Source: Candidatus Gastranaerophilales bacterium (GTDB lineage: Bacteria; Cyanobacteriota; Vampirovibrionia; Gastranaerophilales; Gastranaerophilaceae). Taken from it: a DNA stretch of 64,000 bases. The stretch's first letter is position 1, and each line of letters begins with the position of its first letter. A program made the position numbers and the translations under genes. Positions 8,245-58,722 of this stretch are shown one piece after another. The stretch spans positions 129,131 to 193,130 of the forward strand of contig CALUQY010000001.1 in the NCBI GenBank assembly GCA_944323035.1. Direction: 5' to 3'. Under the pieces are notes generated by a model, which saw nothing but the letters and a program-made list of their open reading frames with translations, was not told the DNA's origin and made no database searches.

Positions 8245-9384
8245 TTATTCCTCAACACTAATGAATTGTTCTCTATAAAGTGTTTCTATGATACCTCTTG
8301 TAAGGTCTTTGCAGATTAAATTGATAACGTATGTGCGTGCATTAGGTTCAGTACGTTGCAATAACCCGAGTTCAACCATTTTGGTTATTAACAAATTTAT
8401 CTGGCGCGGGGTCTTTTCCGGCAATGCCCCTTGAACATCTTTTGATTTAACAATACCCTCAGTTTTATTCAATGCCAATTCTAAAACTTTCTTGTAATCG
8501 TTATTTATAAAATGTAATTCAAGTGCTTTATTTATTGCCGGCATAACAATACGTTCTGCAAAAAATTGTTTGTTCATAAGTTTAGAAACTTTCGACATTT
8601 CTTTGTGCAAACCGCTAAGAACATATTCACACCAAATGGCTTTGCTTTCATCTGTATTTTCATCTGCCACTTGTAACATTTCAAAATACTTGTTTCTATC
8701 TATACAAAAAACAGCGGTAGAGTTTAGAAGATATGCCATATCAAAACCGTATTGACGCAGCATTGAATATGTCAAAATTCTTGACATTCTGCCGTTACCA
8801 TTATCGAACGGGTGTATCCAGGTAAAGCAATGGTGTGCAATCGCAACCTTTAACAATTGCATTTGCATTTTATCATCTTTATTTATCCATTCAATAAGTT
8901 CCTGCATAAAACCCGGAACAGCTGTAGGATTTGGCGGAGTATGTATAGCCTTATTTATTTTAACATAACAAGTTCTGTAACTTCCGCTTTCATTACTTCC
9001 CTCGTTTTTTAAACCTTTGGTAATCAAATAATGTAATTCTTTTAGAAACTTATTTGATATTTTAAACTCTTTATCTTCATCAAAACAGGTGTTCACATAG
9101 TTTATTGCAATTTCAATATTTTCAATCTCTTTTATGTTTTCAAATTCTTTGTTTTCTTCAAATTTATATGTAACATAATCAGAAATAGTTGTTCTGTTAC
9201 CCTCAATCCTTGCTGACTGCAAGCTTTCAATCATGTGAAAAATTTCTTTTACCTGCGTAAATAATCTTGGATTAATCTCTAATGGAGCAATTTGATTTCG
9301 TAAAACTTCAAGTTGCATAATAAGTTCTACCAAATTACTATCAAATGATATTTGAGGTAATTTTAAATTTAATTTATCACACAT
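8245..9384 (-). CDS. Fic-family (AMP-transferase type) protein with winged-helix C-terminus
   Basis: 379 residues. A Fic core with the intact motif HPFDNGNGR (191-199) is preceded by an N-terminal helix carrying the class II inhibitory motif SARIEGN (S57, E61, G62). The C-terminal region (about 285-370) resembles a winged helix (KTPRQINLLITKMVELGLL). Known family activity: transfer of AMP, or another phosphate-containing group, to hydroxyl residues of target proteins, held in check by the inhibitory Glu. The promoter region contains six copies of a TTATTTACGT motif at 22-bp spacing, so autoregulation by the winged helix is plausible. The target is unknown. Confidence 0.88.
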   Translation of the reverse strand: MCDKLNLKLPQISFDSNLVELIMQLEVLRNQIAPLEINPRLFTQVKEIFHMIESLQSARIEGNRTTISDYVTYKFEENKEFENIKEIENIEIAINYVNTCFDEDKEFKISNKFLKELHYLITKGLKNEGSNESGSYRTCYVKINKAIHTPPNPTAVPGFMQELIEWINKDDKMQMQLLKVAIAHHCFTWIHPFDNGNGRMSRILTYSMLRQYGFDMAYLLNSTAVFCIDRNKYFEMLQVADENTDESKAIWCEYVLSGLHKEMSKVSKLMNKQFFAERIVMPAINKALELHFINNDYKKVLELALNKTEGIVKSKDVQGALPEKTPRQINLLITKMVELGLLQRTEPNARTYVINLICKDLTRGIIETLYREQFISVEE

Positions 9385-14787: not shown

Positions 14788-15720
14788 ATGATAAGACGAA
14801 AACTTACCGGCGGATTATATGGAGCAGCTGCGGCAGCCTGTTACGGGATGAACCCTCTTTTTGCTCTTCCTTTAATAAATAACGGCATTGGCGTCAATTC
14901 TGTTCTTTTTTACAGATACGTTTTTGCGGTTATTATCTTCGGAATTTGGGTAAAATTCTTCAAAAAAATCTCGCTAAAAATAACATTGAAAGAATTTTTC
15001 CTGCTTTTCATAATGGGGATTATGTTTTCACTGTCTTCGTTAACGCTTTTTATGAGTTACACCTATATTGACGCCGGAATCGCTTCTACAATCCTTTTTA
15101 TCTATCCGGTACTGGTTGCGGTTCTTATGGCAATCTTCTTTAAAGAAAGGCTGTGCTTTAGCGCAATCCTCTCAATCCTTCTGACAACAATAGGCATTGG
15201 GCTTTTATATAACGGCAAGCTGGGGCAGAGTTTAAACCTCACAGGAGTTCTTCTTGTTTTTTTATCTGCCCTGACTTATGCAATTTACATAATAGGCGTA
15301 AAAAATATTCCGGCAATAAAACATTTAAATACAGCTAAACTCTCGTTTTACGTAATGTTATTCGGACTTCAGGTATATGTTATCAACCTGAAATTCTGCA
15401 CAGAATTACAGTTCATACACACGCCTGTATTATGGCTCAGTGCAATTGCACTTTCAATTCTTCCGACAATCGTATCACTTGAAGCAATGACAATTTCAAT
15501 AAAACTCATAGGTTCAACGCCTGCTGCTGTTCTCGGGGCACTGGAGCCTGTGACGGCACTATTCTTCGGCGTTGTAGTCTTTCACGAACAACTCACACCA
15601 AGAATCATCACCGGAATTATAACAATCCTAACCGCAGTATTAATGATAATTCTTGCGAAAGATAAACATAGAAATAAAGCAGTTCTCCGCCGCTCCGCCT
15701 CGCTGAACCGCGAGCCGTAG
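14788..15720 (+). CDS. EamA/DMT-family transporter with repeat-derived C-terminus
   Basis: 310 residues. About ten membrane spans are arranged as two EamA halves (PVLVAVLMAIFFKERL and PVTALFFGVVVFHEQL mark the end of each half). It has an AGGAG site 10 nt before the ATG. The last 15 residues (NKAVLRRSASLNREP) are encoded by the hairpin repeat that starts at 15673, so the native end of the gene appears to have been replaced by the repeat. The substrate is unknown. Confidence 0.88.
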   Translation: MIRRKLTGGLYGAAAAACYGMNPLFALPLINNGIGVNSVLFYRYVFAVIIFGIWVKFFKKISLKITLKEFFLLFIMGIMFSLSSLTLFMSYTYIDAGIASTILFIYPVLVAVLMAIFFKERLCFSAILSILLTTIGIGLLYNGKLGQSLNLTGVLLVFLSALTYAIYIIGVKNIPAIKHLNTAKLSFYVMLFGLQVYVINLKFCTELQFIHTPVLWLSAIALSILPTIVSLEAMTISIKLIGSTPAAVLGALEPVTALFFGVVVFHEQLTPRIITGIITILTAVLMIILAKDKHRNKAVLRRSASLNREP

Positions 15721-15868
15721 CGTTCCCTCTCGAAAAACAGTTCACTGGACTGTTTTTCTCGGCAGAGTGCTGTCTAATACGCCACTCAAAAGACTCGCTT
15801 GCGTGAGCGGGAGTTGCTACGCAACTCATTCACGCCTCGTTCCTTATCGCGAGTCTTTCTCGGACAAT
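15673..15868 (+). repeat. Modular hairpin repeat, copy A
   Basis: 196 bp from AATAAAGCAG to CTCGGACAAT. Hairpin 1 is GAAAAACAGT, loop TCACTGG, ACTGTTTTTC. Hairpin 2 is a nested stem with outer arms AAAGACTCGC/GCGAGTCTTT and inner arms GCGTGA/TCACGC and GAGTTGC/GCAACTC. It starts inside the EamA gene and supplies its stop codon. It lies between convergent genes. Related copies are at 34699, 44211, 52189 and 54044. Confidence 0.9.
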
Positions 15869-32927: not shown

Positions 32928-33425
32928 CTAAAGCAGTTCTTCGCCGCCACGGCCAGTTGAGCCCGGTACCGTGCCCGGCTTCGCTGTCGCATCTGCCACT
33001 CCAAACTTTCGCTCTTCGCGAAATTTTCTCGGGCTGCTGATTATGTTCCTGAGTATGGTAGTGGAATCTTTTCTTACAACTTCACCGCCTGAATATAAAT
33101 TTTCCATATCAAATTCAATATCCCGTGCACTGCTAATTTCCGGTCTGTGCTCCGGCAAAGTTTGAGGCGCCCCCTCTCCCTGCAATTTAGAAAGAAAAGT
33201 CGTTCTTTCCGCATCAGATGCGATTAAAAACTTTTCACTGCCCGCTCTTACAACGTACAATTGCTTACGAACCCCTAAAGATACACAATCTTCTATCTCA
33301 AGGAATTTTGACGCAGAAACGCGGCTGTTGTTAACAGAGCACTTCTTATAGACGAATAACGCAAGGAAAATCGCGCCAATCATCGCAGTCGTATAAACAG
33401 TGAATGTTAAAATGTAAGAAGTCAC
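32928..33425 (-). CDS. fliO: FliO-like export gate assembly protein
   Basis: 165 residues. One N-terminal span (YTTAMIGAIFLALFVYKKC) is followed by the short FliO-type cytoplasmic domain (VSLGVRKQLYVVRAGSEKFLIASDAERTTFL in part) and a charged tail. Known role: chaperone for FliP oligomer assembly. The start is GTG, and its G is shared with the TAG stop of the upstream gene (TAGTG), so translation is tightly coupled. Confidence 0.8.
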   Translation of the reverse strand: MTSYILTFTVYTTAMIGAIFLALFVYKKCSVNNSRVSASKFLEIEDCVSLGVRKQLYVVRAGSEKFLIASDAERTTFLSKLQGEGAPQTLPEHRPEISSARDIEFDMENLYSGGEVVRKDSTTILRNIISSPRKFREERKFGVADATAKPGTVPGSTGRGGEELL

Positions 33426-44210: not shown

Positions 44211-44363
44211 AATAAAGCAGTTCTCCGCCGCACCGCCTCGCTGAACCGCGAGCCGTGGCGGCTGCGCTGTCTAATACGCCACTCAAAAGACTCGCTTGCG
44301 TGAGCGGGAGTTGCACGCAACTCATTCACGCCACGTTCCTTATCGCGAGTCTTTCTCGGACAA
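44211..44363 (+). repeat. Modular hairpin repeat, copy C (short form)
   Basis: 153 bp. Hairpin 1 is absent; hairpin 2 is kept with outer arms AAAGACTCGC/GCGAGTCTTT and inner GAGTTGC/GCAACTC with a 2-nt loop. It fills the gap between the convergent U32 and phage-like genes and its right end abuts the stop of the latter (44364). Confidence 0.9.
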
Positions 44364-51788: not shown

Positions 51789-51875
51789 TGTCATGCTGAA
51801 CTCGTTTCAGCTTCTGGCCAGCATTACGTGCTACCGGTATCGTTGGACAGATCCCGAAATAAATTCGGGATGACA
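51789..51875. repeat. Dispersed palindrome (GCTGAA...TTCAGC / ATCCCGAA family)
   Basis: Contains GCTGAACTCGTTTCAGC and ATCCCGAAATAAATTCGGGAT hairpins flanked by TGTCAT and ATGACA. A related copy lies at 58163-58249. Confidence 0.8.
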
Positions 51876-51915
51876 TTTCGGATACAGATTGCGCACTAGT
51901 ACCTGTTAAGAGAGG

Positions 51916-51928
51916 CCCCCCCCCCCCC
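51916..51928 (+). repeat. Homopolymer tract of 13 C
   Basis: A run of 13 cytosines in non-coding DNA upstream of the decayed pilin gene. Such tracts slip readily, or may be a sequencing artefact. Confidence 0.7.
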
Positions 51929-52013
51929 TGTGCAAGTAATTACACTTCTTTGTTTTTTCATTTTTCCATCCTTTCTTTTATGGCGTTGGGCTGGCAAGCC
52001 CAACCTACATTCT

Positions 52014-52130
52014 AGTTAATGAGTTAATCAGTTAATAAGTTAATTAGGGTTATAAATTGTTACCCGGGTTCATTTTTCTTACATTCGGTCATATCCCTTA
52101 TTAACTTTTTAACCTATTAACTTTTTAACT
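52014..52130. repeat. Inverted GTTAATAA-type heptad array 1
   Basis: Left arm of AGTTAATGAGTTAAT-type repeats facing a right arm of TTATTAACTTTTTAACC-type repeats, with a centre of about 50 bp. Same family at 58483-58590 and 55005-55137. Confidence 0.65.
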
Positions 52131-52188
52131 TTTCTTGTCCATTTGGCCATAACGACTTATTGCCTTATTGCCTTATTCTCTTATTGCC

Positions 52189-52374
52189 AATAAAGCAGTT
52201 CTCCGTCGCCTGCTTGCCATGCTCCCGCAGGTCAACCCTCTTACCTCTCACAAAACAATTCACTGGATTGTTTTGCTCGGCAGAGTGCCACTCAAAAGGC
52301 TCGCTTGCGTGAGCGGGAGTTGCTACGCAACTCATTCACGCCACGTTCCCTATCGCGAGCCTTTCTCGGACATT
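52189..52374 (+). repeat. Modular hairpin repeat, copy D
   Basis: 186 bp. Hairpin 1 arms CAAAACAAT/ATTGTTTTG; hairpin 2 outer arms AAAGGCTCGC/GCGAGCCTTT. It interrupts a duplicated intergenic region whose other copy (near 58640) has no insert. Confidence 0.9.
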
Positions 52375-52482
52375 ATTCATTATGTACCATGTTTTATATT
52401 TAGTCAAGCTCGATTGTAACAATTTCTTTACTAACTGGCAAAAAATTTCTTGACGGGTTTTAAGGCTAAAGGGATTACAAAA

Positions 52483-54045
52483 GTGTCAATCAATCCAATA
52501 TTGAATAGCGTTAATACTCCGGCTAACCGCAATCCCAAAAAGGATTCGCGCAGGGGAGCAGCACAACCTGAACAACGTGTTAAAACCAGTATTTTCTACC
52601 TTAACGATATTCACGGGAAATCTATAAATATGGAACGGCTCGCAAGCGTTTCTAATACCTTTGACTCGTTCCAGAAATCACAACCGGATGTGGACAGGTT
52701 AAAGCTTTCATCAGGCGATATTCAGCTCGGACACGATGAAAAAATTAACGAGGTCGCCGTTAAATTCCAAAACGCAATCGGGATTCAGGCAACAGCTATG
52801 GGCAACCACGAATTTGACCTTGCCTGGAAAAAATCCGGCAAACTCCTTAACCTCTTAGAACAAATTCAATATAAACTTCTTGCCAATAATGTTTACATAA
52901 ACAACAGCGAAAAAGTTCAAAATAAACTGCAAAACTACACAATTGAGGAAATTAACGGGCACAAATACGGAATTATCGGAACTTCTCCGGTTGATTTAAT
53001 CTCCCGTCTGCGGCAGGGAACGCTTACCGAAAACCTGCGCGTTCACTCACTTGACGAAACGATTAAACAGGTGCAGCGCGATGCCGACGACCTTAAAAAG
53101 CAAGGCGTTGACAAAATCATCCTTCTTTCACACGTAGGTTATGAAGGAGATATTCTCCTCGCACGCGCAACTGACGGCATTGATATCATTCTGGGCGGTC
53201 ACTCTCACGATTTATTGAGAGATATTAAAGAAGGCAAAAACCTTTTCTACTCAAAATCCAACGAACCGGTTATCATAACTCAGGGCGGACGTGACGGAAC
53301 ACACTTTGGAATTTTAAATGTTGAATTTGATGAAAAAGGTATTATCAAAAAAGCACAGAATAATATTTCCTACACAGACTACTTCCGCCGCAATGCGCCG
53401 ATGAGATACATTTTTGAAACTATCCTCGGGAAACCGGAAAAAATCGGCTACATTGAAAGCGCGGAAAAACCGCCGAAAAAAGTTCTCACAGAGCCAACCG
53501 GACACGCAAACTTTATACTTGACTGTATGAAAGAGGACTGTGACGCGGATATTGCAATAATGCCGTCACCTGAAATCCGCGGTTTCTTTGATGAAGGCAC
53601 GCTTGATACAAGAACGCTAAATGAAATTCTGCCGTTCAAAAACAAAGCCGTTGTTGTCAACTACACGGAAAAAGAAATCGTTGACGCAATTAAATTCGCC
53701 TCAACTTCCCTGCAAAACAAAGATAATAAACCCGGAATAATGGAAGTTTCAGGTCTGGAATACAGAATAAACAAAGACGGCGACCTGCTTTCAATGTCCT
53801 ATATTGATAAAAACGGCGCCAAAACACCTATCGACATCAATAACCCGCGGGAAGACAAATTATATAAAACCGTAATAAATGACTTCCACGCGCAGGGTAA
53901 CGATAACTACGCAATGCTTAACAAATTCAATGAAGCCGAAAAAATTTGTGATTACGACATCACAGGCTGCGTAATCAACTGCGTGAAAAAACACAATAAG
54001 CCGATAAAAATTGCAGATGACGGAAGAATTCAAATTGCAGACTAA
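52483..54045 (+). CDS. 5'-nucleotidase/2',3'-cyclic phosphodiesterase family (UshA-like)
   Basis: 520 residues. The calcineurin-like metallophosphatase domain includes YLNDIHGKSI, GDIQLGHDE, AMGNHEFDLAW, ILLSHVGYEGD and GGHSHD. The C-terminal 5'-nucleotidase domain (about 350-510) includes FKNKAVVVNYTEKEI. The start is taken as GTG 52483 (AAAGGG upstream) with TTG 52450 as alternative. There is no signal peptide, unlike periplasmic UshA, so it may be cytoplasmic or exported by another path. Its stop codon is at the first bases of hairpin repeat E. Confidence 0.86.
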   Translation: MSINPILNSVNTPANRNPKKDSRRGAAQPEQRVKTSIFYLNDIHGKSINMERLASVSNTFDSFQKSQPDVDRLKLSSGDIQLGHDEKINEVAVKFQNAIGIQATAMGNHEFDLAWKKSGKLLNLLEQIQYKLLANNVYINNSEKVQNKLQNYTIEEINGHKYGIIGTSPVDLISRLRQGTLTENLRVHSLDETIKQVQRDADDLKKQGVDKIILLSHVGYEGDILLARATDGIDIILGGHSHDLLRDIKEGKNLFYSKSNEPVIITQGGRDGTHFGILNVEFDEKGIIKKAQNNISYTDYFRRNAPMRYIFETILGKPEKIGYIESAEKPPKKVLTEPTGHANFILDCMKEDCDADIAIMPSPEIRGFFDEGTLDTRTLNEILPFKNKAVVVNYTEKEIVDAIKFASTSLQNKDNKPGIMEVSGLEYRINKDGDLLSMSYIDKNGAKTPIDINNPREDKLYKTVINDFHAQGNDNYAMLNKFNEAEKICDYDITGCVINCVKKHNKPIKIADDGRIQIAD

Positions 54046-54280
54046 TAAAGCAGTTCTCTGTCGCCTGCTTGCCCTGCTCCCGCAGGTCAACCCTCTTACC
54101 TCTCACAAAACAATTCACTGGATTGTTTTGCTCGGCAGAGTGCTGTCTACCTCTCGCGAAACAATTCACTGGATTATTTCGCTCGGCAGAGTGCCACTCA
54201 AAAGGCTCGCTTGCGTGAGCGGGAGTTGCTACGCAACTCATTCACGCCACGTTCCTTATCGCGAGCCTTTCTCGGACATT
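54044..54280 (+). repeat. Modular hairpin repeat, copy E (hairpin 1 duplicated)
   Basis: 237 bp. Hairpin 1 occurs twice: CAAAACAAT/ATTGTTTTG and CGAAACAAT/ATTATTTCG. Hairpin 2 arms AAAGGCTCGC/GCGAGCCTTT. It begins at the 5'-nucleotidase stop codon and separates two convergent genes. Confidence 0.9.
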
Positions 54281-58162: not shown

Positions 58163-58249
58163 TGTCATGCTGAACTCGTTTCAGCATCTATCCAGCGTTG
58201 GAAACTACCGGTAACGTTGGACAGATCCCGAAACAAGTTCGGAATGACA
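58163..58249. repeat. Dispersed palindrome (GCTGAA...TTCAGC / ATCCCGAA family)
   Basis: Near copy of 51789-51875; translates as HAELVSAS ... RSRNKFGMT in one frame. Confidence 0.8.
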
Positions 58250-58271
58250 TGTGGACGCAGGGTGGGTTGAC

Positions 58272-58410: not shown

Positions 58411-58673
58411 CGGTTTTTCATTCTTTCCATCCTTTCTTTTATTGCGTTGGGCTGGAAAGCCCAAACTACATTCTTTTTTTCTAGTTAATGAGTTAATAAG
58501 TTAATTAGGATTATGGGAGTTTATCCGGGTTTATTTTCGTCAATTCGGTCATATCCCTTATTAACTCTTTAACCTATTAACTTATTAAGTTTTATCGTCC
58601 ATTCGACAATAATGACTCTTTGCCTTATTCTCTTATTGCCTTCTTCGTTATGTACCATGTTTTATATTTTGCC
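58411..58673. repeat. Duplicated intergenic region, copy 2 (no insert)
   Basis: Empty-site counterpart of 51951-52410. At the point where the hairpin repeat sits in copy 1, this copy reads TTATTGCCTTCTTCGTTATG. Confidence 0.8.
58483..58590. repeat. Inverted GTTAATAA-type heptad array 3
   Basis: AGTTAATGAGTTAATAAG on the left faces TTATTAACTCTTTAACC and CTATTAACTTATTAAG on the right. Confidence 0.65.
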
Positions 58674-58722
58674 AAGGGGGCAAAAATATTTTTTTTTGAA
58701 CTTAATAAAATTACAAAATATC

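What the first reader, a model, noticed from the sequence alone, without database searches (positions are those of the whole stretch)
52189..52374. Filled and empty sites show the hairpin repeat is mobile
Intergenic DNA at 51951-52410 and 58411-58673 is duplicated. Both copies contain CTTATTCTCTTATTGCC and TTATGTACCATGTTTTATAT in order. Copy 1 has 186 bp of hairpin repeat between them. Copy 2 has only the short TTCTTCG stretch. This is a natural before/after pair that fixes both element boundaries and shows insertion (or precise loss). No transposase is nearby, so a non-autonomous element moved by another enzyme is inferred.
Basis: partly seen in the sequence, partly recalled or inferred. Interest (0 to 1): 0.75.

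Follow-up and report, generated by a model that had tools for sequence, protein, structure and literature searches.

The report
Modular hairpin element that jumps
A gut bacterium (Candidatus Gastranaerophilales) carries roughly 130-150 copies of a small hairpin-rich DNA element without a gene of its own; comparison with a sister species shows that it inserts precisely, without target duplication and oriented by the replication fork, although the enzyme that moves it could not be found.

Summary
The block is one of about 130-150 copies in this 1.94-Mb Gastranaerophilales genome. They share AAT-AAAGCAGTTCTCCG at the left and CTCGGACA at the right, and are mosaics (up to 437 bp) of swappable hairpin modules with compensatory stem changes. 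The paralogous pair in the window is only suggestive. Proof comes from the sister genome G003: 17 of 27 resolved sites are empty there, including 52189 and 54044. The best-fitting junction model is insertion of AAT+element with no target-site duplication. The right flank prefers A/T (consensus ATTAA), and orientation follows replication (GC skew, p=3e-6), not gene strand. The element is expanded only in this genus. Anatomy and strand bias fit single-strand transposition of the IS200/IS605 sort, but membership fails: no Y1 or IS110 transposase was found in the six sister genomes, and the one Y1 gene in the host is itself interrupted by a copy. Verdict: a new family of non-autonomous mobile elements, a variant of a known kind, mobilising enzyme unknown.

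The parts
52189..52372 (+). The element (184 bp): AAT + AAAGCAGTTCTCCG ... CTCGGACA
   Evidence: Empty in the paralogous region and in the orthologous G003 locus; ends shared by 89 complete copies held
52251..52275 (+). Middle module palindrome CAAAACAATTCACTGGATTGTTTTG (module present 0-2 times per copy; relatives in other genera)
52294..52364 (+). Right-module hairpin, stem AAAAGGCTCGC / GCGAGCCTTT, 8 nt from the right end; stem varies with compensation between copies
51952..52188 (.). Left flank, upstream region of a pilin-like gene (minus strand); paralogous to 58413-58640
52373..52408 (.). Right flank, paralogous to 58641-58676
58413..58676 (.). Paralogous site without the element; junction between 58640 and 58641
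54044..54278 (+). Second nearby copy (middle module doubled) at the stop codon of the 5'-nucleotidase ORF; absent in L053-L057
34699..34894 (+). Copy of the element; G003 empty
15673..15866 (+). Copy of the element; G003 empty
44211..44362 (+). Copy of the element; present in G003 too
32930..33035 (+). Degenerate copy (106 bp); G003 has about 105 bp between the same flanks

Best explanation
The block is one copy of a genus-specific, non-autonomous mobile DNA element made of interchangeable hairpin modules between fixed ends (AATAAAGCAGTTCTCCG ... CTCGGACA). SHOWN: it inserts at A/T-rich sites with a constant right end, mostly without duplicating or deleting target bases, and preferentially in the orientation that puts its bottom strand (5'-TGTCCGAG...CTGCTTTATT-3') on the G-rich strand, taken to be the lagging-strand template. 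INFERRED: the bottom strand folds at the fork, is cut out and joined as single-stranded DNA, and is inserted 3' of a TTAAT-like target that resembles its own 3' end (TTATT), as IS200/IS605 elements do, by a transposase acting in trans that is not in the assemblies at hand. Modules are exchanged or multiplied by later template switching or adjacent insertion (inferred).
For: 17 filled/empty orthologous pairs; 'AAT+element inserted, no TSD' is best or joint best in 10 of 17 and has the lowest total edits (61, against 75 or more for every TSD length). Right-flank A/T is 0.96 at +3 and +4, with C or G nearly excluded. Orientation against GC skew: 38 of 45 concordant, p=3e-6; 87 of 100 copies on their contig's majority strand against 68 by permutation. 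No bias relative to flanking genes (41 of 92), and at convergent/divergent sites 20 of 21 follow skew. The skew switch on contig C2 lies near dnaN. Structure: DNA fold z = -4.9; three stem classes matched by their own complementary arm.
Against: No IS200/IS605 transposase (PF01797) in six same-genus genomes that carry 19-116 left ends each. The target motif is weak and degenerate, unlike the fixed 4-5 nt sites of IS608 or ISDra2. 7 of 17 junctions do not fit exact insertion best, and two copies sit where G003 has 1.1-1.35 kb of other DNA. That the leading strand is G-rich is assumed, supported only by dnaN near the skew switch. The catalytic step is not shown.
Confidence: 0.5

Rival explanations
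1. It is a REP/BIME-type element moved by the resident Y1 transposase (RAYT, TnpA-REP) at G000:C23.
For: One Y1_Tnp gene lies in the genome, with a copy of this element in it. Two right ends are joined to the GTAG-type REP.
Against: The element interrupts that gene. GTAGGTTGGGC palindromes around it look like its own REPs. No Y1 gene is found in G001-G006, although G003 has 116 left ends, while a genus with three Y1 genes (G011) lacks the element. The element has no GTAG tag.
Confidence: 0.12
2. It is a DDE-transposase MITE (like BOX, RUP, ERIC, Correia) whose target duplication is obscured by divergence.
For: High copy number, small size, modular make-up as in BOX (PMC3049150); one 138-bp copy has inverted left ends at both sides.
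Against: No TSD length from 2 to 10 fits as well as none. The usual copies have no terminal inverted repeats. Strand bias with replication is not expected of a DDE element.
Confidence: 0.15
3. A tyrosine or serine recombinase (coupling-sequence type) or an enzyme of unknown class inserts it.
For: No TSD, A/T-rich targets, left-junction bases sometimes replaced; no Y1 or IS110 gene found in the sister genomes.
Against: No conserved crossover core shared by ends and targets; the left AAT is nearly constant (72 of 89), unlike a coupling sequence. These recombinase families were not searched for.
Confidence: 0.18
4. The empty copies are secondary deletions of an ancestral repeat.
For: The pair in the window is paralogous and cannot give a direction.
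Against: 17 empty sites with intact flanks and the same boundaries; five relatives lack the 54044 copy.
Confidence: 0.02

Closest known systems
IS200/IS605 elements and their non-autonomous derivatives (IS608, ISDra2)
   Same: Hairpins near both ends, no target-site duplication, a one-sided target preference resembling the other end, orientation by replication strand (lagging-strand targeting: PMC6006769)
   Different: No Y1 transposase found in the sister genomes; target is a loose A/T motif, not a fixed 4-5 nt site; many modules and hairpins
REP/BIME/REPIN elements with TnpA-REP (RAYT)
   Same: High-copy non-coding palindromes that fold as single strands
   Different: No GTAG tag; Y1 gene not found where the element is abundant; element is longer and mosaic
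BOX elements of streptococci
   Same: Modular: end modules around a variable number of middle modules; similar size range (67-637 bp against up to 437 bp); copies inside genes
   Different: BOX has terminal inverted repeats and target-site duplications (PMC3049150); this has neither in its usual form
Rickettsia palindromic elements
   Same: Copies in frame inside protein genes (L057, L050; PMC10969869)
   Different: Mostly intergenic here; different sequence and ends; in-frame copies are the minority

Membership tests
IS200/IS605 (Y1 HUH) non-autonomous element | Insertion without target-site duplication | tested here: met
IS200/IS605 (Y1 HUH) non-autonomous element | Subterminal hairpins | tested here: met
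IS200/IS605 (Y1 HUH) non-autonomous element | Fixed 4-5 nt target site 5' of the left end | tested here: not met
   Only a loose WNWWW right-flank preference
IS200/IS605 (Y1 HUH) non-autonomous element | Orientation bias with replication | tested here: met
   (GC skew as proxy)
IS200/IS605 (Y1 HUH) non-autonomous element | A Y1 transposase, or an autonomous copy with the same ends, in the genome | tested here: not met
   Not found in G001-G006; the only host Y1 gene is interrupted; draft assemblies
IS200/IS605 (Y1 HUH) non-autonomous element | Single-stranded circular intermediate | not testable with these tools
   Needs wet work
REP element of a RAYT | GTAG (or CGTC) tag at the foot of the palindrome | tested here: not met
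   Ends are AATAAAGCAG and CTCGGACA
REP element of a RAYT | Co-occurrence with the RAYT gene | tested here: not met
BOX / DDE-type MITE | Terminal inverted repeats | tested here: not met
   Left and right ends are not complementary; one exceptional left-left copy
BOX / DDE-type MITE | Target-site duplication | tested here: not met
Any Rfam RNA family | Match at gathering score | tested here: not met
   Only tRNAs in the window

The most novel reading that the evidence does not exclude
A recently active, replication-strand-specific mobile element that transposes through single-stranded DNA without a Y1 transposase, by an undescribed enzyme or by a housekeeping replication or recombination activity acting on folded hairpins.
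Probability: 0.22. Interest if true: 0.82.

Novelty: new variant of a known kind. Interest (0 to 1): 0.55.

Why it matters
Seventeen natural before/after pairs fix the ends, target preference and strand of a small bacterial mobile element almost to the base. The element is a mosaic of hairpins, adds peptides in frame to some proteins, and seems to have been moving recently in a gut lineage that has few genetic tools. The missing enzyme is a defined, testable question.

Tried and rejected
(1) Y1/RAYT at C23 as mobiliser: it first looked decisive because a copy lies next to the Pfam match; reading the locus showed the copy inside the gene, and the genus survey showed no co-occurrence. (2) Reverse transcriptase at C16: it is beside an Avd-like ORF, so probably a diversity-generating retroelement, not linked to the ends. 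(3) Y2 (IS91) and IS110 transposases in the genus: no hits; the Y2 search had no positive control, so it does not show absence. (4) Long copies as autonomous elements: complete copies held are 437 bp or less and carry no gene; orphan ends look like truncations. (5) Element in phages, plasmids or viral contigs: none; the viral scan used exact patterns only. (6) Target-site duplications of 2-10 bp: rejected. (7) The idea that AAT is target DNA: rejected by pairs in which the empty site lacks it. (9) No paper on this repeat turned up in the library.

Full report
WHAT WAS CLAIMED AND WHAT IS THERE. The two intergenic stretches are duplicated as described: 51952-52185 matches 58413-58645 at 82-83%, and 52373-52408 matches 58641-58676 at 89%. 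Copy 1 holds a block that copy 2 lacks. Comparison with copy 2 (GCC|TTCTTCGTTATG) and with the orthologous locus of a sister genome (GCC|TTTTTCATTATG) puts the block at 52189-52372, 184 bp, from AATAAAG to CTCGGACA. Both stretches lie upstream of minus-strand reading frames that begin ...FTMAEILLSLTIIG..., a type IV pilin-like start (read directly; no Pfam hit), so the duplication is probably one of paralogous pilin leader regions.

WHERE IT COMES FROM. The neighbouring gene (5'-nucleotidase-like) has its closest relatives in Candidatus Gastranaerophilales genomes, among them Ca. Gastranaerophilus phascolarctosicola. The own genome (G000) has 1.94 Mb in 41 contigs.

COPY NUMBER AND RANGE. The left-end pattern gives 172 hits against 29 for the reversed control, the right-end pattern 133 against 7. 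A stricter left-end pattern gives 150 in G000 (control 2), 116 in G003, and 55, 42, 35, 25 and 19 in five other genomes of the genus, 0-5 elsewhere in the family and 0-4 in the order, where controls are 0-3. The middle module alone has relatives in other genera of the order. No match in phage records, plasmid records or IMG/VR (the viral scan was for exact patterns).

ANATOMY. 89 distinct complete copies from G000 were held (42-437 bp by pattern; the three shortest, 42-46 bp, are near the pattern minimum and less certain). 72 begin AAT-AAAGCAG and 77 end CTCGGACA exactly. Between the ends lie interchangeable hairpin modules: a left module with alternative palindromes, a middle module CCTCTC-palindrome-CTCGGCAGAGTG present 0-2 times, and a right module whose stem closes 8 nt from the right end. 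Internal joints read GCTGTCT-AAT-ACGCCACTC, like a right end followed by a left end (read; inference). The right stem occurs in three main versions, and each 3' arm goes with its own complementary 5' arm: CGAGTCTTT 23 of 31, CGAGCCTTT 20 of 26, CGAAACTTT 18 of 19; the 9 crossings seen are between the first two, which differ by one base. The copy in the window folds far better than shuffles as DNA (-37 against -21.8 kcal/mol, z -4.9).

FILLED AND EMPTY SITES. Joined flanks of G000 copies were searched in G003, which is the genome of L053. Seventeen sites are contiguous, hence empty, in G003, among them 52189 and 54044 and window copies 15673 and 34699. Ten are filled: six coincide with element hits in G003, the rest are judged by gap size only. 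Two more (L010, L034) have 1.1-1.35 kb of other DNA in G003, a pilin-like gene in one of them. Direction: at 54044 five relatives lack the element. Testing junction models on the 17 pairs, removal of AAT+element with nothing duplicated has the lowest total edit distance (61) and is best or joint best in 10; target-site duplications of 2-10 bp total 75-132. The right junction, after GGACA, is constant; the left varies by a few bases in the rest. The aligned flanks are about 82-97% identical, which limits exactness.

TARGET. The right flank, essentially unchanged between filled and empty states, is A/T at +3 and +4 in 96% of copies, with consensus ATTAA; further out it is about 60-70%. On the bottom strand this reads 5'-TTAAT^TGTCCGAG...CTGCTTTATT^-3': the target before the element resembles the element's own last bases. 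The motif was described after seeing the data and was not tested on an independent set.

STRAND. Orientation follows local GC skew in 38 of 45 copies (Fisher p=3e-6), and 87 of 100 listed left ends are on their contig's majority strand against 68 in permutations. It does not follow gene direction (41 of 92 flanking genes on the same strand), and at convergent or divergent sites 20 of 21 copies follow skew. Copies in one contig are not fully independent, so p values are optimistic. On contig C2 the skew switches sign at about 90 kb, beside dnaN at about 92.7 kb. If the leading strand is G-rich, as in most bacteria, the bottom strand of the element lies on the lagging-strand template, the strand targeted by IS608 and ISDra2 (PMC6006769).

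WHICH ENZYME. G000 has one Y1 transposase gene, and a 117-bp copy of the element sits in its 5' part; GTAG-type palindromes GTAGGTTGGGC...GCCCAACCTAC surround that gene and are its more likely substrate (GTAG tags: PMC8266576). PF01797 finds no Y1 gene in G001-G006, while G011 with three has no element. IS110 (control positive) gave nothing in the genus; IS91-type Y2 gave nothing but had no positive control. These are draft assemblies, many of them MAGs; a multi-copy gene can be missing from them. Serine and tyrosine recombinases were not searched for.

EFFECT ON GENES. Three of 49 copies in long stretches lie inside ORFs. In two relatives the element lies in frame inside a gene: L057 (5'-nucleotidase) and L050 (a membrane/ferredoxin-like protein), adding about 35-40 residues. 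This is like Rickettsia palindromic elements (PMC10969869).

CONCLUSION. That this is a precise, recently active, non-autonomous mobile element family is well supported (about 0.93). That it moves as single-stranded DNA at the fork is the best reading of four features (no duplication, one-sided target, subterminal hairpins, strand bias), about 0.5-0.6. It works like an IS200/IS605 derivative but cannot be filed there, since the defining transposase and fixed target were looked for and not found. It is not a BOX-type MITE (no inverted ends, no duplication; PMC3049150 reports both for BOX) and probably not a REP of the resident RAYT.

Noticed in passing
G000:C16:8241-8915 (L184): Reverse transcriptase (424 aa) next to a 122-aa Avd-like ORF: probable diversity-generating retroelement.
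   Followed up: partly
window 51985-52008 and 58447-58467; L153 1200-2010: GTAG-type REP palindromes GTAGGTTGGGC...GCCCAAC, also clustered around and inside the Y1/RAYT gene.
   Followed up: partly
window 51917-51929: Long poly-C run upstream of the pilin-like gene; similar runs at the same place in L053, L055 and L057, a possible phase-variation tract.
   Followed up: no
window 51789-51876 and 58163-58250: Another palindromic repeat (TGTCATGCTGAACTCGTTTCAGCATCT...), also present within the 5' part of a pilin-like reading frame in G003 (L221).
   Followed up: no
L057:8098-8205 and L050:1417-1550: Copies of the element in frame inside protein genes, adding about 35-40 residues.
   Followed up: yes
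G000:C10 about 1580 (L010; G003:C15:5442-6597) and G000:C2:38781 (L034; G003:C3:21869-23222): The element stands where G003 has 1.1-1.35 kb of other DNA (a pilin-like gene in one case): gene loss or cassette exchange at element sites.
   Followed up: partly
L195 about 9110-9247 (G000:C4:39110-39247): Copy with left ends in inverted orientation at both sides, i.e. a terminal-inverted-repeat form.
   Followed up: no
L193 (minus strand, about 11344) and L203 (plus strand, about 12825): Right ends of the element joined to a GTAG-type REP in place of the left module.
   Followed up: no
L051 1470-1580: Middle-module hairpin in a repeat of the 3' end and terminator region of a tRNA gene in another genus.
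   Followed up: no
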